In this document: positions 4,638-63,830 of the stretch, one piece after another
Position numbering within the stretch: the first letter of the stretch is position 1
Layout: every line of letters starts with the position of its first letter
From: Gongronella butleri
Lineage: Eukaryota; Mucoromycota; Mucoromycetes; Mucorales; Cunninghamellaceae
Length of the DNA stretch: 64,000 nt
NCBI GenBank assembly: GCA_025201375.1
Contig: JAIWZP010000045.1
Span: 124,001-188,000 of the forward strand
Direction of reading: 5' to 3'
The notes under the pieces: generated by a model
What the model was told of the DNA's origin: nothing
Databases searched by the model: none
The model's input: the letters and a program-made list of their open reading frames with translations, nothing else
Program-made: the position numbers and the translations under genes

Positions 4638-5561
4638 CAAATATGGTGCCCGGGTCGGATGAGCTGAGATGAAGACCTGAAATGCTGAGGAAATTCAGGT
4701 TCAGGTCACAAAGATTCTACCTGAAAATTCGACCGAAACCCGACCTGAAAAAAAACAGAAGACTAAAACCTGACCTGATTTTATCTCAATTCAGGCTCAA
4801 GGGCCTGAAATGTACGACCTGAATGACCTACCGGTAAACCTGAAAGCTCAACTTTTACGATAGAGCGTGCAGGTCGGTTTCAGCTTTCAGGTCAATTTTT
4901 TCAGGTTGTCGGGCATCAGGTCATTTCAGCTCTATTCAGGTACAAATCGTTTCAGGTTGTCGGTTTTCAGATCAATTCAGGTGCGACTCATTTCAGATCG
5001 TCAGCTTTCAGGTCATTTCAGGTGCGATTCATTTCAGGTCGTCGGTTTTCTTCCGGTCAATTCAGGTGTGATCCATTTCAGTTAGTCGGTTTTCAGGTAA
5101 ATAATTCAGGTGCTGAAATCGTGAAATGATCGGAAAACACCGGTAAATAAATTGACGACCTGAAACGACCTGCACCTGAAATGACCTGAAAACAATCGAC
5201 GAACTGAAATGAATCACACCTGAATTGACCTGAAAACCGACAACCTGAAATTAATCGCACCTGAATTGCACTGAAATGATGACCTGAAAACCGAAGAGCG
5301 AAGACTTACTTAATTTAATTGTTTCACAGGCATTTCGGTTGGTTTCAGGCCAAATTCAGGTTGGTTTGGTAATGTTCAGGCAGGTTCATGGACCTGAACT
5401 TTTCAGGTCGTCAAAGCGGCTAGGTATGAGGCTGTTGCCCGGATTGCTTGATCGCGATTCAGCAGGTTTGAATCTCCTGAAACCTGATTTGTTATTTTTT
5501 CGACCTGAACTTTTTGACCTGAAGCAAAATTTCCTCGGGTTGCCACCATCCCTCCTGCCGT
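4638..5561. mobile_element. Foldback-like insertion built of CCTGAA/TTCAGG repeats
   Basis: About 924 bp absent from copy B at the matching site (39,881). It is flanked by CGTCACG at 4631-4637 and 5562-5568, which looks like a target duplication of about 7 bp. The inside is packed with short repeats of ACCTGAAA and its complement. Between ~4866 and 5100 most are in TTCAGGT orientation; between ~5155 and 5300 most are in ACCTGAA orientation, so the two halves can fold on each other around ~5130. Ends show a weak inverted similarity (ATGGTG near 4642 and CACCAT near 5544). No ORF. Known foldback transposons have this architecture; the assignment is by structure only. Confidence 0.5.
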
Positions 5562-5914
5562 CGTCACGGCATAAACTATACAGTAGCCCACCAGTGCTCA
5601 AGGTGAACCCGCCGGATTTTTTTGGGCTCGAAAATTCCAAAACCAACTCCCATTTATGATATACTACAGTATTTTGCATTCATATCTCCATTTGCATGGT
5701 CGACCCCGCTCAAAATTAGCTGCATCGAATTCAGCGCAAAATTTGCAACAAAAAAGCTTAAACCACCAAATAAAGCGCTACGGCCACTTTTGAAAAATTC
5801 AGGGGTCACTCAGGGGTCACACATTTCCATCTCAGAAAATGCCAAATTTGGGAAATTTCGAACTCCGCGTGATCAATGCATCCCAAACAGGTATCTCCGA
5901 CCATTTGCTATTGA

Positions 5915-6379
5915 TGTTGTGCCCGCTGAAGGGCACCGGTGCCACAGGCACGGAAGGGACAGCAGCATTGATTTGTGAAAGCATTGTGGCATGTTTATTA
6001 TAGCAATAAATGTACAGTATGTGATTGTGAAGATAAGGGAAAAAGGAAGCAAGGACATGCGCTGTGCGGATGTCCTTTTACTGTACACTCTAAGGACCAA
6101 GGGAAAATAGGGGGTCGTACTGTATCTACAGATGAGTCAAGATGATGGATCTGAAGGATCCTTCAGTAAAAAGGGGATTTAACGCCATGTTAAGGGTCAA
6201 TTGCATGTTAGGAGGTTGGGTCATCATGCATTGGTGTTGTTGGCCATCCGGAATTAGGAGCTAAGAGCGGTCGCGCGAAGGGGACAGCCTTGAGGAGGGG
6301 GGATGGCACAAGAGCGCGTATGTAAGAAAAAGGTAATCCAGAAAAGCATAGCGTGAATCTTGGCTTTGCGGGCATAACA
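5915..6379. mobile_element. Solo LTR of a retrotransposon with 5-bp target duplication
   Basis: This 465-bp block starts TGTTGTGCCCGC and ends GCGGGCATAACA, a 12-bp terminal inverted repeat with one mismatch and the TG...CA ends typical of LTRs. It is flanked by ATTGA on both sides (5910-5914 and 6380-6384). Copy B of the surrounding repeat lacks it: at ~40,205 the sequence runs straight from CTATTG into GCAGACAAA. AATAAA occurs inside. No gag or pol sequence is next to it, so it is a solo LTR left by recombination between two LTRs. The superfamily (Ty1 or Ty3) cannot be told. Confidence 0.8.
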
Positions 6380-7110
6380 ATTGACAGACAAGCAAAATGG
6401 CAGGCCGCCCTACTTTTTTTAAGAAAAAACCCAAAGAGTGACGCATGAACGGCGATCGACTGAGAAAAGTGCCTACTTTGGGCAAGTTTTTTTTGCAAAA
6501 ATTTTAAGGTTCGACACTTCCAAACTTAAATGCTTAAATTGCATGGAATTTTTTTACTGGATTTTTTTGCAGGTTTTTGTGCGCTGTAGATATGATAGAA
6601 TGGGCTGCAAGCTGGTGGTGAAATGACCGATGCAAAAAGTTAAAACCCAAGCTAGCGCCCTGCAAGTCATCCCATTAGATGCTTTGCTCCCCTGTTTGTT
6701 ATTAAATATAAAATAAAAATCGGGGGTTGAGTAGACAGTTGTCGAGCAAATCGTCATTGAATATTTTGTTGAAAAAGTGTATTTCCTCGGCCAGTTTTGA
6801 TCAGATCACCGTGAAACTTATTTCATTCGGTGGAGATTCTGCAGCAGCATTTGACACGTTAAAAGCATCGTTGGTTATTTTTCCAGCTGTCGAGAAAAGC
6901 AAGTTTAAAAATTAATCCAAAGTTTGATCGACTTTGCAAGCGGGCAAAGTTCACCCATCGGGCAGGCAAACAATCAGGAAATGACACCCGAGTGCGTCTC
7001 TTTCGATCTGTGGTGCCATCATTTCACCACCGCGATCCACAAAATATTTTGAGAGACTCGTGCCGGATTTGTGGAAATGTCAGAATTTTGGATTCATGCA
7101 CAATGACTCG

Positions 7111-9900
7111 GTCGACTCCTGGTTTAAACCGTTTTTCAAAAGATTCGCTTCGGTAAATATTACGTACCGTATACTGTATACCGGTATGTGTAGATTTTGG
7201 GCCACCCAACCATGATGTATGATTTGGGTCATTTAATTCAGCATTTGTAAAAATGTCGAGATTTCGAATTCATCTGCAAAACGATCCAGTCAATTTTGGG
7301 GTTTCATGTTGTGTTGTTGAATAAGGCGCGGCGAAATAGTCAAAGGGCAAAGGTTGGGAGGAGGCAATCGATTCATGATTTGCATTGGTCATCCATGGAT
7401 TTGTGCCAATTCTTGAAAACAGCGCATGCCACGAAAACGGCCCGATTAACATCTGGTTTTTTAATTTTTCTTTCAAAGAGAGACGCTGAAAAAGCTATGA
7501 TAAGTGGCAAAGTTTGGCGATGATCGAATCACGATTTTACCGCGAAATGAATTTTACAAAAACGCGCTACAGCCAAATTTTTAGCAATGCCGTGCTTCCC
7601 GACAAACTACATGATTGACCTTTGGATTTTTATTTTTTTCTGAGAAGAGAGGAGCAACATTCACTACATGTAAAAGTTTCGTGGCGCTGCGATGAGCCCT
7701 TATTGCTTGGCGACGAATTTTTTTCAAATTTAGAAAAAAAAAGGTGGGCCAGGTCAAAATGAATCTGGAGGGTCCTCCGCTTTCAAAGGCGTAGGTCTCT
7801 CAAATCCGTTTGGCAACCTACACATTGGATATCTAAGAGTCATATCATTTGGTGCATTGACCCCTTCTTTCTAAGCAAATCTGCGATAAAAGTCGGGGGG
7901 TCAATCGAGCCGTTCTCGAGTAATGAGCGATCAAAGCCAAATTAAAGAAAAAGAAATTGCGCCATCGGTTTCGGTCGTACGCTGGTGAAACTGGGTTCAC
8001 CCGACAGAGAATCGAATTCTGCATTTATTGTCACAGCAACACGCCATCCTTTGTCTTGTCCATTGCCGAGAAAAACGAAGCTGAAATGTTTGATTGGGCG
8101 TTGCAAGCGTACAAATGTTGCACATCGGCGTTGCCGGGCAGGGATAAAATGACCCCCTTGTGCGTATCTTTCCACTTGTAAGATTTAAGCCTGGTTGAAT
8201 AGCAGCTTGACGCGATAGAGAAAAACTGTGAATTTATGAAGCATTGTCAATTTTCTTGCCAACGGTCAGATCAACCTCCGGTTTTTACTATAGTTCTGAA
8301 AAGAGAGAGACCAAAATGCTCATATGCCAAAATTTCATGGAGCTGCAAGCACCCGATGGTGCACCACATCGATTTTCAAAAATGATGATTTTCCATCGAT
8401 TTTCCAAGGGGTACAGTCATGAATTTTAACCTGGCAAAACTTGGTTTCTCGGATCGCCGCGCCATTCACCCACATGGTAGAATGCATCCATTTGCCAATG
8501 AAAATGCCATAAAACCCCGGGCTCCATCGACTGGTGTAAAATGCAATCTATTTCGTATTTTCGCCACAAGACAAACTCGACAAAGACTTGCCGCAGATCA
8601 TCGAAACGCGGCTCACAAGAAAGAGCACAGGCTGTTACGTATGCGACCATCGATGATCACTTCAAAAAACGAGATCCAGGCAGAATTGACGCGAACAGGT
8701 TGTTTGCGGGATAACTTGGACGTGTGAAAAACGGCGTCAGACTTTGATTTAAACGCGTCCGTTTCAAGTCGAATCCATACACCTCGAACTTCTTTTGCTA
8801 GTGAATGTGTCGATGCAGCTCCAAGGACGTGCTCTTGCGTGCCATAGCGATTGGCGCGTCTATTGTCTCGACATTGTCATATTTTTTTTGAGCCTGCGAA
8901 TGGGCTGCATGTCGCTGGGCATGTTCATTGTGAATAGACTGTATGCCTCTTAGTGCGTTTATTGCGAGATAAAGATATGTGATTATGAATGGCTAGGCAA
9001 AGCAGCCAAAAAAAAAAAAAAGAAACGAGGTGCCACGCGTAAAAGTGCCGCCTATAAAAGGCGATGTTCCTTTTAAAATAATTTAAACAGTTTCATCACA
9101 ATACAGTACACCAGATATTTCGAGATCAGGGACGAATTTGTGAAAATAACGAAATTTCGGGTTCATCTACACAATGATCTAGACCACCAACTCCTGTTTT
9201 TAATTTGTATCGCTCATACTTGCGTGTTTTCAGTGATCTCACACTTTTCAAGGTCAGATGTCACTGCACACCACCTAGCCAGGTCAGACAAAGGCATCCA
9301 GATCTTGTTCTTGCTGATGGCCCAGCCACCACCTGATTGACGTTTGATTTTTTTTATTTTGCTGGATGATATTTCTGAAATGAATTATTGAACTGTAAAG
9401 GTGCTCTCCAAATCGTGGTCCATCGACGACGGCATCTTTGAGAAACCACAATTATGACAGTACTTTCTTTCTTAAACCCTTGATCGCTCCGTGAGTTTTT
9501 GCTGAACGTTTTCGGCGAAGCGATTCTCATTCAGCAGAGAATCGACCTTTTTTTTTTTTTTTTTTTTTTTTTTGTATTTCCTAGCGAGTAAATCGTATTT
9601 AGCACTTTAAGCAGATATTTTTGGTATACAATGGTCATTCTTTGCCATTGCAAATTGCAACGAAATAACGCTAAACCTGTTTATTTCCAGCAGTGCAAGT
9701 TTCATCCAAGGTCAATCGAGCGCACTTCGAGAAATGTCATTGAATGGACGATTTTTTGTTTTCGCGTACATGACGATCAATATGTGTCCAATTGAAGCAG
9801 TGTTGCTTCCATGGAGTTGGTATGCACGCTTTGCACCTTTTATCTTGCAAACAAGGTAGCCCATAAAAAGCTCGTTGCCGACAAAATTACAATTGCAAGT
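7111..9900. repeat. Degenerate further units of the same repeat family
   Basis: No gene is seen. Several motifs recur in weaker form: a unit around TTTGTGAAAATNNCGAAATTTCGGNTTCAT at ~7070, ~7245 and ~9140 (also 40,910); a CTGCGATAAAAGTCGGGGGGTCAATCGAG-like block at ~7880 that matches ~6710 and ~9690; and a CCGAGAAAA block at ~8065 that matches ~6890 and ~40,730. The block 8,440-8,750 matches 20,775-21,090. The whole stretch looks like eroded tandem or nested copies. Long T-runs occur near 9549-9573. Confidence 0.55.
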
Positions 9901-39455: not shown

Positions 39456-39764
39456 ACTCTAGCCCACTTTTTAAAATAAAATTTGCAACCTATTTTATAT
39501 CCCTTGACGATTTTTGGGTTGATTTTCTGGACTCTGGTTACAGTAGCATGACTTGGTATGATACATGATAACACGATGGTTTTAAATACTGTATATGATA
39601 TACCGTAATGTACGATACAGTATATGATACAGTATGATAGACAGAAACTGATGCGTGCAGGCGTGCTATTATAGTATCGTTTCCATGCCTCCTGAAGCAT
39701 CGCTCTTCTACAGTAGTATGATACAGTACACGGCAAATGGCACGAAAACGCACCGGTAAACGTT
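39456..39764. other. ATACAGTA-rich stretch downstream of ASCC1
   Basis: No gene is seen. Six TACAGTA/TACTGTA heptamers occur between 39,539 and 39,728, set in a sequence with repeated TATGATACAGTA phrases. Confidence 0.5.
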
Positions 39765-41000
39765 CATCTTTTACAGTAAATACCAAGCAAAGAGCATGTT
39801 TTTTCGGACTTTGCCGGTCTGCTGTGCGTCCAGAAATTTTTTTACAGCCTGCTCTCCCGCCAACGAAACCTGCGTCACGACGGCGTAAACTATACTGTAG
39901 CCCAGTGTTCAAGACACACCCGCCCGATTTTTTTTGGATTCGAAAATGCCAAAAACCTCCTATTTGTACTATTTTGCATTCATCTGTCCATCTGCATGGG
40001 CGACCCCGCTTAAAAATAGCTGCATCGCATTCAGCGCAAAAATTGCAACCAAAAAGCTGAAACCCCCAAATCGCTACGACCACTTTTGAAAAATTCAGGG
40101 GTCACTCAGGGGTCACGCATTTCAAACTCAGAAAATGCCAAATTTGAGGAATTAGAACTCCAAGTGATCAATGCATCCCAAACAGGTAAATCTGACAATT
40201 TGCTATTGGCAGACAAAACGGCGGCAGGTCACCCCAAAGTACGAAAAAAAGCCCAGAGAGTGACGCATGAACGGCGATCGACTGAGAAAATTGCCTACTT
40301 TGGGCAGGATTTTTTTGCAAAAATTTAAGGTTTGACACTTCCAAATTAAGATGATGGATTGCATGAAATTTTTACATTTTTTTATTTTTTTATTTTACAT
40401 TTTTTGCGCGCTGAGTGGGCTGCAGGCTGCTGAATTGACCGATGCAAAAAGTAAAAACCCAAGATAGCGCACCGCAAGTTATCCCATTAGGTGTTTTGCC
40501 CCTCTGTTTGTTAGTAAAACTGCAATAAAAATCGCATGTTTATTACAGTAGTAGACCATTGTCGAGCAAATTGCGATTAAAGATTTTAATGAAAAAGTAA
40601 ATTTTCTCTGCGAGTTTTAGCCATCCATCGATGAAACTACAGTATCATAGTCTCATTAGATAGAGCTAGAAGAGGCGCTTTTGATACGATATGATAAAAG
40701 TGCAGCGAGTCGTTCTTCTGTCCGTTGCCGAGAAAATTGGATATTGAAAATTAGTCAAAGTTTGAACGACTTTCTGGCATACTGTAGATGAAGGTCATCC
40801 ATCCATCGGGCGAGCAAACAATCAGAAAATGACGTCCGAGTGCGTCTCTTTCAAGCGGTGTCATTTTCACCGCGGTCCACAAAATATTTAGAAACCTTAA
40901 CTTGTGCTAAATTTGTGAAAATACCGGCATTTTGGATTCATCTTGGCAAGCACCAAGTCGACCTCTGATTTTTAAGAGTTCGTAAAAAATGGACGCCCAA
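39765..41000 (+). repeat. Dispersed repeat family, copy B (without the two insertions)
   Basis: This aligns with copy A (4,525-7,110) in the same orientation and order, and shows both insertion sites empty: ...CCTGCGTCACGACGGCGTAAAC... at ~39,875 and ...GCTATTGGCAGACAAA... at ~40,205. It also carries several TACAGTA/TACTGTA heptamers, some at places where copy A has none and the reverse. No coding capacity is recognised. Confidence 0.8.
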
Positions 41001-41306
41001 AAATAATCCAATGCATAGGTTTGGAGAGGCGAAACACCCAAGGTTTCTTGTCTTTACGACAACATTTGTGAAAAATCATGCAAAAATTGCCAATTTCTAA
41101 AATCGTCCACAACAGCCCAATCGCCCCCTGGTTTTTAATGTTATTTATAAACTGACGTGCCAAAATTACTTACAGTAATGGCTAATTTTGGAACCGATCC
41201 TCCAATTGCTGCGCTGTTTGTAGCAATCAGCATACTGTACTTCTTGTCATGGTCCGGCCCGCTCTCACTCCTCCTATGTCCATGGTGCTGTCGTCAGCGT
41301 CGACGT

Positions 41307-41765
41307 TTACGACAGCTCCAACTGTACAATCAGACTGACGTCAGGGTAGTCAATCCCAACACCATAGGCGCTGAAAAAAAGGATGAGGAGATCACTGATC
41401 ACTGATGTCACTTTTTTTTACCTCGTTGCCACCACGATTTTGATGTCACCGTCGAGTCATTGGCGGAGTATTTGAGCTTTGTCGCTGGTCTCCGAGTTGT
41501 AGGCGGCGGAGGAGGGCAAGCCGTTCTGCTGTAAAAACTCGCTGCTTACTGTTCTGTACTTGCTTCGTGACACATGCTTTTGGAGCCTCAATCTCACGCA
41601 TCCAAACGCGCCCGACAGCAGGGCTCGTGCCACCAGCAGCATCTGCGTTTTCAGCCTCCGTTGCCGACGCGCGAGCATTATTGGAAGGTGCTGTTCCTGT
41701 TTCTCAAAAACGCGTTTGAGCTCTGTCTTGATTTTTGGTGACGCGTCCAAATTTGATTCAGCCAT
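41307..41765 (-). pseudogene. RecQ/SF2-type DNA helicase relic
   Basis: Two segments, 41422-41765 and 41307-41370, join across GTAAAA...TTCAG. The junction region reads DGDIKIVVATSAYGVGIDYPDV, the conserved C-terminal helicase motif V region of RecQ-like SF2 helicases (VVAT-x-A-x-G-x-GID-x-P-x-V). It is preceded by SSAAYNSETSDKAQILRQ, which fits the YHS...KR..IL segment, but a TGA at 41457-41459 interrupts it where Trp is common. Motifs I-IV are missing; the right side abuts the Tc1 element at 41,778. It may derive from a helicase-bearing mobile element or a telomere-linked helicase. Confidence 0.6.
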
Positions 41766-41777
41766 CCATGTACTGTA

Positions 41778-41827
41778 CAGTGCCCTAGCAAAAAAACTTC
41801 ACAGTTCAAACTTCATTTTTTTACGCG
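41778..41827. repeat. Left terminal inverted repeat of the Tc1-like element
   Basis: It starts CAGTGCCCTAGCAAAAAAAC and is inversely repeated at 43349-43398. Confidence 0.85.
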
Positions 41828-41989
41828 TCACATTTTTTTGCATTATATTCCACCACTCAATGGGTACAGTATTTCATGAAGATCTCTCAAATTTCACATG
41901 GAGGTCCTTTAATACTTTGATAATATTCATACAAAAAAGAAAAGTAAAATAGCAAGGGTGTCGCTCGCAATTGGCAGTCACCATCGCGT

Positions 41990-42944
41990 GGGCTTACCAC
42001 GGTTCACGATGACAGCCATCATTCGCTTCGGCATGGATTCAATGAGCTTGTTCCAGTCCTCTGGCTGAAACTCATCCCACACGTCACAAAGAACATCCTG
42101 AAACTCCTCCAATTCCATTCCTGCATGGAATCGTGCCTGCACGCGTACGTACCTTCATCGTTTTCCATAAATTTTCGATGGGATTCAGGTCGGGCGAGCT
42201 GGCAGGCCATTCCATTTTTTTAATTTTTTTTTGGCGCGCCAAATCTTGGGATCGTTGGACCGATGGATAGGCCACCAGGGGCCCCATCCTCCATCAAGAT
42301 AAGGCCTCTTTTGCCACGAATGAAGTGCTTCAAAGGTCCTTCATAGACCACGTCGACGTAGTCTTTCGCAGTGGTTTGCGTGCTGCGTGCGGTTGTTGGC
42401 CCCTTCTTTGACGAAAAGAGCGAGCAAGAAGATCCGTCTTTTTGTTCCACATGATACCACCCCAGACCATTTGCGACGTGCGCCCGCTTTTGAAAGTGGG
42501 TGTAAGGGCCTCTGGGTGGTCAGCCTCTTGAGCTGTACGCCAGGCACGGACGCGTCGACTGTTTTTACCGATCTCGAAAGAAGACTCATCGGTAAAAAGA
42601 ACCTTTTTCCACTTGTCCAAGGACCACTTGGCGTGTTGTCTAGCAAAAGCAAGTCGGCGAGCTTGTTGTAGACTACTAACAAAGGGGTTTTTCTTGGTCA
42701 CTCGCGAAAAGATCCCCATGCCATGAAGACGACGTCGAATCGTGTGACATGACACGTTCAGACCAGACAAATCCGTGATCTGATCCAAAGTCGCCCGTCG
42801 TTCGTTAAGGGTAACGCGTCGTCGTAAGAGACGTAGGTCGCTTTCTGTGAGCTTCCGCGGGCGCCCTGAACCCTTTTTGCGTTCGTAGCTGCCACGATCT
42901 GCAAAATTCTTGATAATAGTGCTATAGATGGTACGCGTCGACAC
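41990..42944 (-). pseudogene. Broken Tc1/mariner transposase
   Basis: The first and longest open part (42944 down to ~42440) carries the second DNA-binding helix-turn-helix and hook (GSGRPRKLTESDLRLLRRRV, NVSCHTIRRRLHGMGI) and the first catalytic Asp in KVLFTDESSF, then WGGIMWNKK. Frame changes follow near 42,440, 42,285 and 42,150. The pieces hold the second catalytic Asp (LILMEDGAP), the catalytic Glu in [16 protein letters not shown] and the C-terminal DWNKLIESMPKRMMAVI. All three DDE residues are therefore present, but in different frames. The expected N-terminal ~25 residues are not readable upstream of 42944. It cannot make transposase; mobility would need a copy elsewhere. Confidence 0.85.
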
Positions 42945-43348
42945 GTTAGAAGAACGTTTCCTTTTATTTTAAACGCAATATTTTTTGTGGAAAATCAAAG
43001 CAAAAATGAAATGTTGCTTTTTTATGCATAACCATATGATAGGGTTGCTTACTTGTTATCTTATGAAATAAAATACATTTACAGTAAGAAAACATTATAT
43101 TCAAAATAAATTTTTATGATATTTTATAAAAAAAGTAAAACATTTAATAATTTTCAAATTCTAAATATCATGTGATCGTTCTTCTTAAATTCAGACGCTA
43201 ATGCAGCGACATCGCAGCCACTTCTATGAAGAGCGACCACTTGGGCCTTTTGAACAAGAGAGAGGACCATAGTTTGCAAGAAAAAAAAAGAAAGGTGGAC
43301 TTAGCAACTCAGGGCGGCGCTTTTTGTTTCTGCCCAAAAAGCAGCGGG

Positions 43349-43398
43349 CGCTTAAAAAATGAACCGCTGTGAAGTTTTTTTTTGCTAGTAGGGCACTG
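43349..43398. repeat. Right terminal inverted repeat of the Tc1-like element
   Basis: It ends GCTAGTAGGGCACTG, the inverse of the left end with a CTA insertion. Confidence 0.85.
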
Positions 43399-44377
43399 TA
43401 CTGTTGTAGATCGTGTGTATGTGATTGTATCCTCCAAGAGATATGCGAAGATTGACCCGTTTTGGCCTGTTTTGGGTCATTTACGAGCAAGAGCGCGCCC
43501 TGCATGTCAAAATGCACACGTTTATTTTCCTATGATGATCCTCTTACTGTACAACACATCCATGCCTCATTTTTCCTTATTCTTTTACTAGCTACTGTAC
43601 TACGTACTACTACAGTATTCTTCATTTCCCTTATTTTTTATTGTTTTAAGGCTTCTTGGACCATTTAATTCGGAGTATTGCTTGCTCACTCAAGCATCAA
43701 TTCTTTCCCCCACTCGCTCTCCCACCTTTAAAAGGCCATTGAGGACGTCATTTGCAACTCCCTTTTTCTTTACCTCATTATTGTTGCTTGTTGGCCTACG
43801 TACTTTCTTCCTTTTTATTTTTAAAACCACAAGACCCAGCGGTAGGCTTACAAATTGATGAATATTTACTTCATGACACTCATTTTTAAATAAAGGGTTT
43901 TTACAGTATTACCGTATATTGACAAAGAAGAAAACGATTGAAAAACCCGGCTTTTGGTACTACGTATCACCATGGATGTTAGGGGCCGGCAGGGGTCCCG
44001 CGACTGATATGGTGCGTCTCAATCATCTATACTGTAGAACGGTACTGTAGTAACCGTCACTTTTTTGGTCAACTTTTGAAAATTAATTGCAAAAGTTTCC
44101 CCCATTTATTGGAAAAAATAAAAAATATTTTTAAATAAAAAATAGAAATGAAAGAATGGGTCATTGCGAACATTTTCTATTTTGCCTTGTATTGTTTTTA
44201 ATAAGTGGTTTGGTTCCGACGCACGCTATTAATTTTTAAAATGGCATGTCAAGTCCACTTTAAGCGGGGGACATCATGAAATTGAGCCATCCCCGCCCCC
44301 GCCCCCCGGACGGATAAATGTTTTTCCGAATTGTATTGACTGTGAAGCATCGAATGTTTTAATTTTAAATAAGGTTC

Positions 44378-44450
44378 TTGCTTGTGGTTCAGTGGGGCAA
44401 TCTTGACATGCCAGCATCATGCTGGCGCGTGTTCGATTCTCGTGTTTTAC
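44378..44450 (+). other. tRNA-like relic with A-box and B-box
   Basis: It contains TGGTTCAGTGGGG (A-box-like) and, 40 bp on, GTGTTCGATTCTC (B-box-like), with a 5-bp hairpin GCCAG/CTGGC at the anticodon-arm position. The acceptor stem does not pair and the base 5' of the anticodon is not T, so it is not a functional tRNA gene. It may be a relic or part of a tRNA-derived SINE. Confidence 0.35.
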
Positions 44451-44509
44451 ATTTTTTTGCACATGCCAGGGGGCTGCCGCCTGGTTAATTTTTTATTTTG
44501 GCGCGCAGG

Positions 44510-44595
44510 TACGTTATGGTCAAGTGGCATAAAAAAGCGTTGTACTCAAAAGAGCTCTCGATCTGCATGTCAAGAAGAGTTCGAGTCCTGGTAAA
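44510..44595 (+). other. Second tRNA-like relic
   Basis: TGGTCAAGTGGC (A-box-like) is followed ~50 bp on by GAGTTCGAGTCC (B-box-like); the spacing suits a tRNA with a long variable arm. The T-stem and acceptor stem pair poorly. It lies 60 bp from the previous relic, so both may be one SINE-like unit. Confidence 0.35.
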
Positions 44596-44865
44596 AAAAT
44601 CTCAAAAAAATTGAGCCACTTTCATGTTACAGTAAATACTGTAGATGAGACGCACCATACCCCATCGGCGGACACCAAGACCAATTATTGCAATCCTTGA
44701 AATGCCACTGAGGAAGTCCATGAGCAAATTTCAGGGAAAGTGCCAGTTTCATAGGCCGATAGGCGTAATAAAGTGGGTAAAATCACGACCATCTGGTCCG
44801 TACCGTGGCCACAGCAGAGCGCCCCGACACGCAAGTCACCTGAAATGAGTCAGCAGCCAAACGCG

Positions 44866-45265
44866 GTGAAAGCGCTTGTGGTTTGGGGACATCGCTTCGA
44901 GTTCTCCGCGAGTTAGCCTTCAAGGGGTTGATTTGACCCTGGTTCCACCAAGCAAAATGCATTTCCTCATGACTGATGAGTGATCCGATCTCTGAAAAAA
45001 ATTGACGTTGTCAGCATTTTTTTGTGTTCAGCATCCTCTTGCTCAAATAATATAGAACCTGATGAACAAGACCCGGAGGTGGCGCCCAGCAAAAGGGGTA
45101 ATGTTTTGTCCATTCTAGAGGAGGCTTTCGCGACAACGAACCAATGTATCAGCGCGCGAGGCACCTTGAATATCATAAATTATCATATCATAGCGGCCAC
45201 AAGCGGTAAAAGCGCTTGTGATTTGGAGATCGCGCCGCTGGGATCTCGACGAGTTAGCAATCTGA
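44866..45265. repeat. Short duplicated motif around GCGCTTGTG
   Basis: 44,866-44,925 and 45,203-45,265 share GCGGT(G/A)AAAGCGCTTGTG(G/A)TTTGG(G/A)GA and GCGAGTTAGC/ACGAGTTAGC in the same order. They are about 55-60 bp each, 337 bp apart, in direct orientation. The function is unknown. Confidence 0.5.
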
Positions 45266-47527
45266 TGAATATGGGGTAGCTTTTGAGCAAAAAGGGTGAA
45301 AAAGATAGAGACGTTAAGAATAACGAGAATGAAGTAAGTCTTTTATTAAAATGAAAAGATCTCGATATTTATACAAAAATGAAAAATGCCTAGACGGATA
45401 GGCTAGATGCGCAGACGCGTAAAATGAAGCTGTCGCGGCGTCTGAATAAGGAAACAGGGGCGTGAGACCAAGACATGGCCGCGCAGATCTCAAACAAAAC
45501 GTTATGCCCATCCCAGAGGATTCAAACATGCCAATGCTTGCAAGCACCGTGTTGTTTCACTTGGTGCGCAAGTGCTAGAAACATAATGGTTCGAGTCGTG
45601 TGTGCCAACATGCAATGTTTGGCACTGACAGGCCATTTTTCTTTTTTTTTTTTTTTTTTCTTTTGTTTCTCAAAAGGCATTGATCACTTAGTGATCAAAG
45701 CAGGCTATGAAACCGTGAGGGTGTGTTTCTACTTAAGCATCTGAGAAAATGTGATGATGCGTACAGAGACCGAGATGGAGGAAGATGCGCATTCTTCCAA
45801 AACGCATGAACAAGCGGTAAAAGGAGATGACCAGCCGACAGCGGGCTTTTGTGACGAGCAGAGCGGGAGCATTACCCAATTGGGCAATGCCCCGCTTAGA
45901 GGAGCGGCATGAGAAAGATCCAATTGCGGCAACAAGTCAGCATTTTAATTCTTTGATCGCTGCTTGCACACGCATTGACGCGTTGAGCGCGTTTAAGACG
46001 CGCTTATGCTTTCTTTCGTTGACAGACCAAGCGTCTGTTAGGCTTTTCTTATTAAATCAAGCTCTGTAAAGCAGGCAAATACAACACAATCAAGGGTCAT
46101 TTTGGCCCTGGTTCCATTTTGGTGGCGTGCGCGACAACGGCCTAACGTACAGTACTGTACAGTATCGACGCTCATCAAACTCACTACAGAGGTGGAGATC
46201 GTCTGTTGTGGTCGCGCACCATGAAGTTTTTGTCGAAAAAACGCGATGGAGCCAAGTTTTTAAACGTTTTTGATGGATTTTTGATGATTTCACAAGTTTG
46301 CATCCTGGAATCTGGCGCATGTTGGTGGCGTTGTGTGCATCCTGATGGTTCCACTTACATTGCCTTTATGATGTTTCGATTGAGGGCTGTCACTGGCAGC
46401 GGTCACGAGTACAGTAGCGTGCTGGTGGTCTTACGTAGCGCAATTGCAACATGAGCACGGTGTGCCCCCCCCACTTTCGTGCGCGTATAAAATATGCAGG
46501 GTCGGCGGCCTTGGAATTTGCCCAAAGGAGGCAACCCGAACGAAATGCGGGCACGGGTTGGGCTCCACATCCAGGACGTGTCAAAAAAAAAAAAGGCACG
46601 TGCTGCCCCAAGAACCGGAATACCGGTGCGGGATGTCATTTTTTTTTTTTTTTTACATTCATAATAAATAGGTATCGCTGTGGATCTCCTTAGAAATGCA
46701 ATTTTGTGGATGGATAGCGTCATTGGCCGTTTTGTCTCTTGCCAAGATAAAATTGAGATTTTGCTGGAATTGTTCTGTGCACCTTGGCGGGGCCACAAGC
46801 TGACTTTCGTCTCTTTACCTCTGCTTTTGTTTTTTTGTGATCAGCTTTACGTTTTGTGCTAGTTTCTGCGGCAGTGACGCCCAACAAGGAAGTTTGCTCG
46901 CTCCGTCCCACGTACGTGTCTGGCACGGGACCACAGCCCACTTCAAGTTGTTGAGTTGCTGTTGCCAATAGGCACAGCACCGAGCATGGGAACAGACTTT
47001 TTTTTTTATGACTGGAAATCCCGCTGCGCATCTCAGAACCCATTTTACTATTTTTCTCTCACTCCTTCTGTGCCTTGGCACGCGATGAGCCTGCTGAGTG
47101 ATCCGCCTCTGGTCTCAGTTGCAGTGAACAGCTCTCCTGATATACGCGGATCATGGATTGGATGCTAAAAGAGAGGTTTTTATTCAAATTGTGGCAAAGA
47201 TGTTAAAAAAAAATAAGGATGCGGGTGCGACTGTTTTTAGTGTTGCAGGGATGGGGTAAAATTGGTGTGTGTGGTGTCACAAGCGGCTAAAAAGCAGGGT
47301 AACCAAGGGCGAGACCATGAGAAGAGGAGAAGCAGAGTACGACGTAAAAAAAGGATCGGGGATGACGCAAAGAGGGCTGGGAAACAAAAAGATTACTTAG
47401 ATGATGCTGAGATGGGAGCGAGAGCGATATTGAGGAAAAAAAAGGCATTGTGTGGAGATTTTGTGTGTGTGTGTCATGTGTTGAAATAACGGGTGGGCAC
47501 GGGCCTCAATTCGCCCTTCCCTTTGTC

Positions 47528-59349: not shown

Positions 59350-61540
59350 GCATTGATCTCTCCACTCACCTCATTTTTTTTTTTTTGTTTTTTTTTATTT
59401 AGGTTGGCACCTCGCAGCTTCCCCAAGCAAGACAATGAACCCCAGGAATTGTCATTGGCGAGCAAATGCACAAAAACCTTATTGCCTGCAATGCAAAAAG
59501 GCAGCTCTCGGTACCTTAATCCCGTTTTGGTAAGTATCGGGATCTGCAAAAGGCAAGTGCGACGAACAAGGCAACACCGCACTGTCAAAAATGGTATGTA
59601 CAGGGCCCTCCATGCAAAAATGACCTGCAAAATCATCGTTCATCTCGAATAATCCTCTTTTTCCAATGGGAAATCATCGTCCATCGGTGCACATGGACTT
59701 TCACCCACGAACCATGTCCCAGGTCTTGGGAAAAATACAAACAGAACAAAACAAAAGCGGATCGAACGCGCTCCGTGCGTCCCCGTGCTTGAAACAGCCT
59801 CGCAAAAACGAGACTTGGGCAACCTGTGGGCAAATTGACAGGGCCATGACATCATAGTTGCCCTCACCGGCCTATTTTTTTTTTTTTTTAGCAGAGTCAG
59901 GCTGTCTGGGGGCGGTGCCGGCCGCGGTGCGGGCCGCGGCAGAAAAAAAAAACAGGAAAAAGGGCGCACTCTCCGCTTTTACATGACGAATGATCAACGC
60001 AATGGCCCGTCAACTCCAATTGGATGGGTCCCATTGGGAAGAAGTGTGCCTGTGACCATCTCGAACCCCAAACCCACGCGGAGACGCGCCTCCATTCCCC
60101 CGCGGTGCGCGATCAAACTTTTTTTTTTTCATTTTTTTGAGCGCCGCATCAACGTTACGAGTCGCTTACGACTCAACCGTTAAAAAATCTATGATTTAGG
60201 TTATCCAGATTATGGTCCGCCCACACTTCTCGCATTCTCACCCTCAAAAAGGAAGAAAATGAAATATAGACAAGAAAAAAGACGTTGGATGGAGCTGAGC
60301 GAGTGCATGGTCACAGGATTCCAAAAGGTCGGGGCTGGGACACAAGCAGCACGAACACAAACGACATGACAGCACTCGTCTATTTTTATTTTTTGAAAGC
60401 ATTTTCGTTCTTGGCAGCAGGGGATTGGGCGCGCGCAGGGAAAGAACCTTTGCCAGTGTCGTGGTCAGCCTTTCCTGCGTCGATTGGATACGAGACGCGG
60501 CGTCCTTGGTCATTTGGCCAGATTTTGATTGCTGGACATGGCGGCCGTATGATAGTGTTTGTGAAAGAAAGTTAAGGGAAAAAAGGGGGGATCATGAACC
60601 CTCTAATTCCTCTTGTCATTTCACTGTCGACACTCAACGACAGGATATCCATGTGCGCGTGAGACCAGCCAGCAAGGCGTGAACCTCACAAAACACACTG
60701 AATACATAAAAAAACCAGAAACACAAAAAAACAGGTTAGCCCTAGATTTGCTGTGAATCGACATGAGTCTAGGGTAAAACAGGTTGAGAAAGAGCGTGAA
60801 CGACACGAAAGACGAGCAATGTGCATATGTAGTTGGCATAGTATTGGGCGTAACGTGAGAGGTCCATGATTTACAGTACAAACATTTTTTGCATGTAAGA
60901 CCAACACAGGCACACGTTACTCAAGATGCCAACAATCAGAAAAATTTCGCCCACGCTGTGCCGTAGTCTCAATCGGCGTTGACGCGTCAACATGGCGTCC
61001 TGGAGTACGATTCCGGCGAAAATCAGGTTAATCTTAATATGGCGCACTCTGATCGCCAGAAAAGCGCATCTTTGAGATCTACAGCTTTCCTGTCAGTTAA
61101 AGTTGATACAGGCGGTATGCTCAAAGGCAGCCCAAAAGAAGCCAGAAACACTTTGTCCACCTAAAACAAAAAAAACGCGTTTTTCCCGAATTGGTGCGAT
61201 CCGCGCTACACCTCGTCTTTGAATGCTGTGTACATGGGTGCACATCGCGTGTCTTGATGTCTCTGAGTCGTTGCAACAAAAATTGGTGTCCATCTGGCTC
61301 TGTATACGACGCGACTTTTCGCAAATATCGCCATTTGACAACTTTTTCGCCATTCGCCTCCCATCTCCTCCTTACAAAATCGCAAACACGTCCAAGTCTA
61401 GACTATAAACAAATGATTCTTGATTCACGCTCAATCAGTCCATTGGCTATTGACGAGCGCGCAAACCCGCGTCAAATTTTGTAATTGACACGAGCCCTTG
61501 GCAAAAAAAAAAAAAAAGAAAAAAAAAAAGCAAGAGGCTC
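59350..61540. repeat. Tandem 2.3-kb unit, first copy
   Basis: It is diverged but co-linear with 61,541-63,830. Shared blocks: TGCAAAAGG(C/A)AGC(T/C)CTCG...GTACCTT (59,490 vs 61,870); GCACATGGACT (59,690 vs 62,020); AAACAGCCT (59,790 vs 62,127); a minus-strand SMP gene (60,386-60,539 vs 62,687-62,845); the TTGATTCACGCTCAATCA-like block (61,420 vs 63,730); and the end block ATCGCGGTCCCATGGTCAATGACCAA (61,583 vs 63,885). The offset is about 2,300 bp throughout. Confidence 0.75.
60386..60539 (-). pseudogene. Frameshifted SMP-type stress protein copy
   Basis: Co-linear with the intact copy at 62,687-62,845. The ATG (60539), the MTKDAASRIQ core and the tail with TGKGSFPARAQSPAAKN and a TAA stop (60386-60388) are all readable, but in three successive frames. 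Single-base deletions are placed after about codon 5 and after about codon 20. If the sequence is correct, this copy cannot make the full protein. Confidence 0.65.
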
Positions 61541-63830
61541 TCTCACCACCCGCTCCATGCCATTTTTTTCTTTATGCTTGAGAAATCGCGGTCCCATGGT
61601 CAATGACCAAATAAAATTTGTCTTTCAAGTAGGAACAGGGTGCATTTGCTTTTTATTTTGGCGTAATTGGAATCAAAAGAGCCACATACAAGGATGTAAA
61701 GTGATACAAGGCAGCTAAGGGACATGAAACGGAATGGAAATGCATGATTACGAGCTACAGTGATCCTGCGTTGGGAAAAAAACAAAAAAAGGAAGAAAAA
61801 TCGCGTAAATCGACAAAGTGCTGTAAAAGCATGAAAAATAAAAGACAAACGATCATTTGATGTTACCGTGCAAAAGGAAGCCCTCGCTGTACCTTCATCC
61901 CTTTTGACAAGCATCGTGATCCGCAAAACAGGGCCCCACCATTGCAAAAATGACTTTCAAAGCATTTTTCATCTCCAATTGATCTTTTTTTTCCATTAAG
62001 CAATCATTTTTCATCGGCACACATGGACTGTCACACATGTACCATACGCCAGGTACTGTATAAAAAATAAAAATAAAAAAAGGCAAACAAGCGCGGATCA
62101 ATTGCCAATGATACGTCCCCAGGCCTAAAACAGCCTACTGTAGCAGATGTGCTTTGGGCGATCTGTTTGAAAATTGACAAAGCCAATACATCATTGTCGT
62201 CTTGTCTAGCTTGTTTTTGCCAGAGACAAGCTGTTTGGGTGCCTGTGTGCGATGCTGCCCGTTGTGAAGGGAAAAAAGGTGCTTTCTCGACTTTTTCTAC
62301 ATTATTGATCAGCCGAAGGCCATCAGCTTCAATTGGATGGGCTGCATCGTGAACAAATGCGCCTGTGGCCTTCTCCAACCCCAAATCCAAGTGGATACGC
62401 GTTTCTTTTTGCCAGCAGCACGAGATCAAGCCTTTTTTTCTTTTTCTGAAAGCCGTTCATCGCAACGAGCAACAAGCGACCCCTCAACCGTCGGAATCGT
62501 CATGATAAATCACACTGACCGTGGCCTGCCCACGTCTCTCATTCGCACCCTCCAAAATTTTAAAAAAAAGAAAAAAAAATAAATAATAAAAAGACGAATC
62601 AAATGGATGGAGCAAAGCGAGTACATGATCGCGGGACGGAGGGAAGCGAGGAGTGCAACCCCAGGCGACACAAGAGTACTAGTTTTTTATTGCTTGTTGG
62701 CGGCATTTGCATTCTTGTCAGCAGCAGCTTGGGCACGCGCAGGGAAAAAATCTTTGCCAGTGTTGTTGCCAGCCTTGGCATTGGCCGCTTGGATGCGTGC
62801 GGCATCGTCCTTCGCCATTTGGACAGGTTTTTGCTTGTCAGACATGTTGGTGGTGAAATTGCGAAAAAAAGAGAGAGATAGGGGGAAAAGTGACAACCAG
62901 ATTATCCGTCTTTTATAATCATTCCACGATCGAGATCTTACGACGCAATCTTTAGAAGCGTGTGAATCTGGCGGGCCAACTTGTCGTGAAACTCACGGGT
63001 TTTTTAAAATAAAAAACTAGGAAACTATAAAATCTCGTTTGCCCATGAACATGGTTGTATTTTCGCGTGTGTTCAAGGCAAACTGACGGATAAAACGCAT
63101 GAAAAAAACACGATAGACGAGCGATGCACACGTGCAATTGGCGTACGATGGGGCGTAATGCGTGAGATTGATGATCTACTAGCAGTTTTAGCCTATGAGG
63201 TTGACACAAACGCAACTTGCTCTAGAAGCCAACAAACAAGAATATTCACCCAAGCGGTCTCGTGATCCAGATGGTCTAGGCGCTTCAACAGGGCGCCTAG
63301 GGGAAACGATTTCGGCGTAAGACTTACATTTCTCAAGTTGGAACGTCCCGATCGACCGAAAAGCGCGTCCTTGTGATTCGACAGCTTACCTGTCAATTAC
63401 AGATGATGGAGGCGGCGTGCTCAAATGTGATCCAAGAGTGTCCAAAAACACTTGCTCCACGCAAATAACAAAAACAACAAAAAAATGCGCTTTGCCTGGA
63501 TTGGTACGATCCGCGCGACAAGTCGAACCTGAATCCTGTGTAAAAGAGTGCACATCACGGCACAAATGCCCTTGGGCGGTTGTAACATGTATTGTTGCCC
63601 GTATGGCCTGTTTAGAGGGCGATTTTACCAAGAATCTCACCATTAGGGAGCTTTTACGCCAAATTACCACCCTACTACCTCCCTCGAAATAAACACGACG
63701 AGGCGCAGAATCGGAATGTGAACAAACGACCATTGATTTGCGCTCAATCATTCTACGGACCATTGACAATCACTCAACCCCGTATCAAAATGTGTAATTG
63801 GCGCCAAAACTTTGGCAAAAAAAGAAACTA
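61541..63830. repeat. Tandem 2.3-kb unit, second copy
   Basis: The second unit, with the intact SMP gene near its middle. The unit outside the gene shows only short open frames on either strand and no family signature. Confidence 0.7.
62687..62845 (-). CDS. Small SMP-type (seed-maturation-protein-like) stress protein
   Basis: A single exon of 52 residues. The MAKDDAARIQAANAKAGNN and FFPARAQAAADKNA segments match the SMP motif (DAARIQ...A...G..F..RAQAAA..N) found in plant seed maturation proteins and in small fungal proteins, which are hydrophilic and disordered and tied to desiccation or stress tolerance. It is short but complete: ATG, SMP core, Ala/Asn-rich end, TAA. The start at 62845 is chosen at MSDKQKP; 17 further upstream codons are open but contain a phenylalanine-rich leader. 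Function is inferred from the family only. Its tandem sister at 60,386 is broken. Confidence 0.72.
   Translation of the reverse strand: MSDKQKPVQMAKDDAARIQAANAKAGNNTGKDFFPARAQAAADKNANAANKQ

What the first reader, a model, noticed from the sequence alone, without database searches (positions are those of the whole stretch)
39539..46416. A field of TACAGTA/TACTGTA heptamers that look like Tc1/mariner excision scars
Seen: about 37 copies of TACAGTA or its complement TACTGTA in the window by eye. 27 lie in 39.5-46.5 kb, 7 in 5.5-9.2 kb, 3 in 60.8-62.2 kb, and none that I noticed in the gene blocks. Chance would give roughly one per 8 kb for the pair. Known: excision of a Tc1/mariner element of the Sleeping Beauty type leaves TA plus three terminal bases plus TA, i.e. 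TACAGTA or TACTGTA. The element at 41,778-43,398 has exactly CAG...CTG ends. Inference: a burst of insertion and precise-cut excision riddled these repeat regions with 5-bp scars, giving a readable fossil record of transposition.
Basis: partly seen in the sequence, partly recalled or inferred. Interest (0 to 1): 0.78.

Follow-up and report, generated by a model that had tools for sequence, protein, structure and literature searches.

The report
Genome riddled with transposon excision scars
A probable fungal genome carries thousands of five-letter scars left where cut-and-paste jumping genes once sat, and the surviving jumping genes of one group nearly always have a scar-like sequence right at their ends, which may show how they move or where they land.

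Summary
Observation confirmed and enlarged. The window holds 38 TACWGTA, none in the 49.5 kb outside three fields; about 1.5 expected. The 33-Mb assembly holds 16,213, against 1,999 TACSGTA. They look like 3-bp excision scars plus TA, as Sleeping Beauty leaves.

New points. (1) Three scar classes, often chained. (2) W scars are young, about 2% decayed by my estimate, in repeats 13-19% diverged. (3) Likely donors: short-TIR Tc1 elements (W) and a 346-aa Tc1 family with CCG ends (S); the TATSATA donor is unknown. (4) 112 of 133 short-TIR element ends have TACWG directly outside the flanking TA, middle base near random, against 1 of 22 in the CCG-ended control family. So these elements either really end in CWG, five bases further out than their CAG suggests, or land between their own scars. 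I lean to the first (about 50%).

The parts
39539..46416 (.). Scar field: 28 TACWGTA, 12 TATSATA and 2 TACSGTA in 39,481-46,500
5579..9108 (.). Second scar field: 7 TACWGTA, 3 TATSATA and 1 TACSGTA in 5,401-9,600
60872..62142 (.). Three further TACWGTA
39893..39899 (+). TACTGTA in a dispersed repeat; most of the 22 aligned copies have no addition at this TA, and the copy at 5,579 has TACAGTA at the same place
5579..5585 (+). TACAGTA, paralogous counterpart of 39,893 with the other middle base
46148..46164 (+). Chain of three W scars sharing TAs: CAG-CTG-CAG
39623..39639 (+). Mixed chain TGA-CAG-TGA of two scar classes
41778..43398 (-). Decayed Tc1 element, TIR CAGTGCCC(TA)CTAGC..., TA on both sides
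41773..43403 (-). The same element if its true ends are the outer CWG triplets (CTG TA CAGTG ... CACTG TA CTG); left outer dinucleotide TA, right outer TT
   Evidence: sequence
42330..42944 (-). Transposase fragment, HTH_Tnp_Tc3_2 (PF01498, 1.4e-12); a later part of the catalytic domain gives a separate PF13358 match at window 42,129-42,245

Best explanation
TACWGTA, TATSATA and TACSGTA are excision scars of TA-inserting Tc1/mariner-type transposons. A transposon enters a TA (duplicating it), leaves by 3-nt staggered cuts, and end joining of the two flanks leaves three bases and the extra TA, i.e. five bases. Shown: five-bp TANNN additions against plain TA in paralogues, restricted to three classes; both middle bases at the same paralogous place; chains made of mixed classes; no W scar outside three fields of the window; Tc1 families with matching ends for the W and S classes. 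Inferred: the cut itself, the end joining, and the outer terminus. My preferred detail (about 50%) is that the W-class elements really end in CWG, with TIR CWG-TA-CMR..., so the whole unit TA[CWG TA ... TA CWG]TA is what moves, one jump writing one scar, and the middle base of the CWG cap is often re-drawn between copies, as if two like 3-nt overhangs had been paired and the mismatch resolved either way.
For: Genome-wide excess over the same-composition control. 25 of 65 five-bp insertions placeable at TA, the 25 in three classes only. A repeat family in which a short TATA stretch gained TACTG, TACAG or TACCG in different copies and stayed without addition in most. W within doublets nearly free: 733 same, 880 alternate of 1,613 (p 3e-4 for the small excess of alternate), against slippage. 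0 W scars in 49,480 bp outside the three fields. 37 PF01498 matches, 35 over the cut-off; the 360-aa group has CAG ends, the 346-aa group CCG ends with roughly 200-bp TIRs. For the outer terminus: TACWG outside the TA at 112 of 133 ends across inner triplets CAG, CCG and CCA, control 1 of 22; 15 of 17 CCA-type ends carry TACWG, yet TACCATA is not clearly in excess: 16 against 15.8, or against 10.7 after masking, two of the 16 being the ends of element L023 itself; after stripping of scar units the flanks of copies L121 and L125 join to a plain TA that paralogues share.
Against: The outer-terminus detail does not explain why the middle base varies in copies whose first 31 bases are nearly identical, nor the head-to-head pairs with a single TA between two TIRs (L052 and L146, one junction seen from both sides; L054; L118), nor ends such as GATTGTA, AGACGTA and ACGTGTA. 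The TACCATA argument rests on how often CCA-type copies jumped: with an 8% share of events the shortfall is clear (p 4e-7), with 4% p is 0.01, with 2% 0.26. TATSATA and TACSGTA are not confined to the fields: 6 of 21 and 1 of 4 in the window lie outside. No element with TCA/TGA ends was found, so the second commonest scar class has no donor. No second strain could be compared. The 346-aa family was assigned to the S class by its end sequence alone, and some S scars may be W scars with a changed middle base (5 of 117 caps are TACGG).
Confidence: 0.9

Rival explanations
1. Landing-pad model (a rival to the outer-terminus detail, not to the scars): the elements end at CAG as usual but insert almost only at the TA between two earlier scars (TACWG^TA^CWGTA), so each excision writes the address for later insertions.
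For: The flanking caps have a free middle base like real scars (T 60, A 52, G 5). All 12 ends that have the TA but no full cap still have G before the TA (for example GATTG, AGACG, TCCTG, ACGTG, TTCTG, CACTG), as a graded target preference would give, and head-to-head insertions use another element's CACTG as half site. The unit beyond the cap is W in 39, S in 4, Q in 1 and none in 73 of 117, against W 140, Q 73, S 11, none 668 beside W scars at large (Fisher p 7e-6 for W against Q).
Against: It cannot make the commonest scar, a single unit at a plain TA: excision from a doublet should leave three units. No copy examined sits at a plain TA on both sides. CCA-type copies should leave TACCATA, which shows no clear excess (depends on their share of jumps). 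At clean sites the caps agree in forward W in 10 of 13 scorable copies, against 733 of 1,613 doublets at large.
Confidence: 0.27
2. Trap model: elements hop through plain TAs leaving single scars, but become stuck when they land between two scars, so survivors are found there.
For: Explains single scars, free W in the caps and absence of free copies. My rough arithmetic: if about 0.5% of some 14,000 hops fell into doublets, that would be of the order of the roughly 100 surviving copies (from; not a tool result).
Against: CCA-type copies should have left TACCATA on the way (same caveat on their share). Q units are 73 of 224 scar neighbours of W scars at large, yet form no cap among 133 ends and 1 of 44 next units.
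Confidence: 0.13
3. TACWG is a pentanucleotide satellite or a binding motif spread by slippage or selection, not a scar.
For: Chains up to seven units occur; slightly more alternate than same-letter doublets (880 to 733).
Against: Singles dominate (426 of 538 chains in the dense sample); slippage would give same-letter units; additions sit at plain TA one by one in different paralogues; two further classes with the same layout, one matching a transposon end.
Confidence: 0.02
4. TACAGTA...TACTGTA are the two ends of short pogo-type MITEs (TA + CAGTA).
For: Pogo TIRs begin CAGTA (recalled); three DDE_1 matches exist, each with stops inside.
Against: Among the inverted CAG pairs printed (14 of 24) I saw only the known Tc1 elements, inner repeats of the 346-aa elements and pairs made of scar chains; the addition in paralogues is five bases, not a MITE.
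Confidence: 0.01

Closest known systems
Sleeping Beauty (Tc1/mariner) excision footprints
   Same: Footprint TAC(A/T)GTA (PMC3432063, passages seen); 3-nt 3' overhangs joined by NHEJ, TA target duplication, local hopping (PMC7827188, passages seen)
   Different: Here natural, thousands per genome, in three classes and in chains; the elements carry an extra TACWG outside the TA. Not seen described in the listings (no hits), which cover open-licence papers only; two papers were opened, passages only
Tc1-like DD34E transposons (Pfam PF01498 + PF13358)
   Same: HTH_Tnp_Tc3_2 and DDE_3 domains, DD34E spacing counted by me in the 360-aa and 346-aa frames; database relatives up to 85% identical over 77% of the query, and more distant named ones from Puccinia, Austropuccinia, Mucor, Entomortierella and the moss Physcomitrium (best 120 of 989 listed)
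   Different: TIR starts CWG-TA-CMR... if the outer terminus is right; about 1-kb non-autonomous copies outnumber the autonomous ones among the listed ends
Tc1-type MITEs
   Same: Non-autonomous, TA-flanked, share TIRs with an autonomous element (L097-L176)
   Different: About 1,005 bp and, in the one read nearly in full (L057) and a CCA-type relative (L023), palindromic over most of the length; longer than typical MITEs (recalled)

Membership tests
Tc1/mariner transposons (W-class elements) | Transposase with HTH_Tnp_Tc3_2 and DDE_3, DD34E | tested here: met
   spacing counted by eye on the frames
Tc1/mariner transposons (W-class elements) | TA target-site duplication next to the TIR | tested here: met
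   inner TA present at 129 of 133 ends; outer TA at 117 as well
Tc1/mariner transposons (W-class elements) | Nothing conserved outside the TA | tested here: not met
   TACWG outside TA at 112 of 133 ends; by contrast 1 of 22 in the 346-aa family (2 of 24 ends dropped for lacking the exact TIR)
Sleeping Beauty-type footprint | TA + 3 bp + TA with plain TA before insertion | tested here: met
   paralogue comparison, 25 placeable of 65 five-bp insertions
Sleeping Beauty-type footprint | Middle base A or T about equally | tested here: met
   22 to 16 in the window; doublets 733 same, 880 alternate
Sleeping Beauty-type footprint | Made by transposase-dependent cleavage in cells | not testable with these tools
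   needs an excision assay
Mariner proper | Transposase_1 (PF01359) present, as a possible source of TATSATA | tested here: inconclusive
   no match, but the search rang in no control genome either
Pogo/Fot1 (DDE_1) | Intact DDE_1 transposase as source | tested here: not met
   3 matches, each with stops inside

The most novel reading that the evidence does not exclude
The scars are not only a record but an address: these Tc1 elements settle only between two of their own scars, or rebuild a fresh scar-type joint (TA-CWG-TA, middle base re-drawn) at both ends each time they land. Either way excision products and insertion sites feed each other, which no Tc1/mariner element that I know of does.
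Probability: 0.35. Interest if true: 0.9.

Novelty: new variant of a known kind. Interest (0 to 1): 0.74.

Why it matters
Excision scars are usually met in experiments, a few at a time. Here a small genome holds about 14,000 more W words than the TACSGTA control, plus 9,529 TATSATA, young enough to read. That makes the history of a cut-and-paste burst countable: rate, target choice, repair outcome, local re-insertion and avoidance of genes. The scar-like caps on the surviving elements pose a direct mechanistic question (where does the transposase cut, and what re-draws the middle base) that one excision assay can answer.

Tried and rejected
Rejected: composition artefact; satellite slippage; short pogo MITE ends. 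Tried without result: DDE_3 families of 336/337 aa and one 401-aa copy as TATSATA donors, no TA-flanked TIR found in five stretches. A 7-bp target duplication (same forward middle base on both sides) is favoured at clean sites, 10 of 13 scorable, but not obeyed; with further units it is 13 to 11. Species naming: an NMD3 search had unnamed top hits, and the organisms named among the 120 listed are fungal in six of ten, so fungus is likely and the species open. Rfam on the window and the tRNA scan with bacterial settings gave nothing.

Caveats on counts: the 20 C1 stretches were picked for heptamer density; L010 holds a tandem repeat of about 193 bp that repeats some TATSATA. In one search rows L067-L075 were read a few bases off; one search relocated them by TIR and its table is the one used for ends, while the 10-of-13 and 13-to-11 figures are without them. 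L052's left end and L146 are two sides of one junction. L191's TACTG may belong to a neighbouring element's end. L196 has no TA and may not be an end. The ends were taken from 40 of the non-autonomous CAGTGCCC-type copies and from others, not from all copies.
Full report
What was claimed and what is there. There are 38, in three fields, with none in the remaining 49,480 bp. The window lies in a 33.0-Mb assembly of 110 contigs. It has eukaryotic gene fragments (NMD3, a sugar transporter, an M24 peptidase), and six of the ten organisms named among the listed NMD3 hits are fungi. The species is not known to me.

Genome-wide. TACWGTA occurs 16,213 times; TACSGTA, the same apart from the middle base, 1,999 times. 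The reversed words, which do not keep TA, occur 6,355 and 9,577 times and are a poor control. Two units sharing a TA (TACWGTACWGTA) occur 1,613 times against 12 for the reversed word. TATSATA occurs 9,529 times against 1,031 reversed. In 260 kb (window plus 20 stretches chosen for density), of 32 TANNNTA classes three stand out after masking: TACWGTA 446 against 6.3, TATSATA 208 against 11.6, TACSGTA 58 against 6.7; the next is 14 against 2.9. In the window 6 of 21 TATSATA and 1 of 4 TACSGTA lie outside the three fields.

The decisive test. A dispersed repeat at 39,640-40,020 has at least 39 relatives elsewhere. Aligning 20 of them and two window copies shows no addition in most and TACTG, TACAG or TACCG additions at neighbouring TAs in a few. 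Across all repeats in the held sequence, 65 distinct five-bp insertions were found; 25 can be placed as TA becoming TANNNTA, and these belong to the three classes only: 14 TACWGTA, 7 TATSATA, 4 TACSGTA. The other 40 could not be placed so; a few of them look like altered scars. This is what 3-bp excision footprints predict and what a base-composition effect does not.

Scars chain and mix. Of 538 chains in the dense sample 426 are single and 112 have two to seven units, and W and Q units are mixed (adjacent pairs W-W 70, W-Q or Q-W 73, Q-Q 15). In the genome 733 W doublets have the same letter and 880 alternate; slippage would give mostly same-letter units. One-mismatch relatives of TACWGTA are only modestly in excess (261 against 206), so the scars have decayed little (my estimate about 2% per site), while the best repeat copies are 81-87% identical to the window's.

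The donors. There are 37 PF01498 matches, 35 over the cut-off, with two groups of long open frames of about 360 and 346 aa that score alike. The 346-aa group has TIRs of roughly 200 bp beginning CCGTGGC directly after TA, which fits the TACSGTA class. The 360-aa group has TIRs CAGTGCCCGGAC..., and its relatives CAGTGCCCTAGC (also the window element), CAGTACCC, CAGTGACC, CCGTACCC and CCATACCC. About 80 copies in all, the 360-aa ones included, carry CAGTGCCC-type ends (80 forward and 82 reverse matches); most of the pairs listed lie about 1,005 bp apart, and one such copy read nearly in full is palindromic over most of its length.

The surprise. The short-TIR elements seldom sit at a bare TA. 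Of 133 ends examined, 112 have TACWG and 5 TACGG directly outside the TA (360-aa group 20 of 22, 1-kb copies 72 of 80, CCA type 15 of 17, others 10 of 14), middle base T 60, A 52, G 5, C 0; in the 346-aa control group 1 of 22. Stripping all units from the flanks and joining the outer flanks recovers a plain TA shared by paralogues in the clearest cases, L121 against L020 at 89% identity, and L125; 15 of 49 copies had any such paralogue in the held sequence, many of those alignments are too gapped to judge, and in L147 the paralogues read AA instead of TA.

Two readings. Either the mobile unit really ends in CWG, five bases outside the CAG, so that one jump from a plain TA gives the capped state and one excision gives one scar; or elements land in the TA between two scars. 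For the first: single scars at plain TA are by far the commonest, and landing in doublets cannot make them; the cap is CWG whatever the inner triplet; and TACCATA shows no clear excess (16 against 15.8 unmasked; against 10.7 masked, with two of the 16 in element L023's own ends) although CCA-type ends number 19 and are capped too. That last argument is clear if CCA copies made 8% of the jumps (p 4e-7), weak at 4% (0.01) and gone at 2% (0.26). For the second: the middle base behaves like that of scars, all 12 ends with TA but without full cap still have G before the TA, and some elements abut another element with a single TA between. I put the first at about 50%, the second at about 27%, and a trap variant at about 13%. 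At clean sites (one unit on each side) the forward middle base agrees on the two sides in 10 of 13 scorable copies, suggestive of a shared origin of the two caps, for example an end-to-end joined intermediate; with units beyond the cap it is 13 to 11.

What is not explained. TATSATA, the second commonest scar, has no donor: the inverted pairs with TCA or TGA ends in the sample were inner parts of palindromes, scar chains or weak, mariner-type PF01359 gave no match in a search without a working control, and the extra DDE_3 families showed no TA-flanked TIR.

Comparison with the known. TAC(A/T)GTA is the published Sleeping Beauty footprint (PMC3432063, passages) and the three-nucleotide stagger with end joining is its accepted cause (PMC7827188, passages). 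Searches of the open-licence library for the heptamers, for genome-wide scars and for chained scars listed nothing that I recognised as this (listings only). The scars are a known kind in unusual number; the capped elements look like a new variant of Tc1.

Noticed in passing
window 39,557-45,192 and genome-wide: TATCATA/TATGATA behaves as a second scar class (21 in window, 9,529 in genome), with 5-bp additions in paralogues, but no donor element was found.
   Followed up: partly
L011:5681, L035 (repeat copy): Additions of the form TA to TACCGGTA, or close to it (four bases plus TA), perhaps scars of an element with a 4-nt stagger.
   Followed up: no
L057:1-933 and L023:6152-7168: Palindromes of about 1 kb that look like non-autonomous Tc1 copies.
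   Followed up: partly
L177-L181: Other DDE_3 transposase families (336-401 aa frames; several matches on different contigs score alike) without recognisable TA-flanked TIRs.
   Followed up: partly
L010 about 4,660-5,110: Tandem repeat of about 193 bp that carries scar-type heptamers in each copy.
   Followed up: no
window 4,924-5,276: Imperfect tandem arrays with 41-85-base units built on TTTCAGGTCAATTCAGG.
   Followed up: no
window, whole: Long A and T tracts are very frequent (AAAAAAA or its complement 918 times).
   Followed up: no
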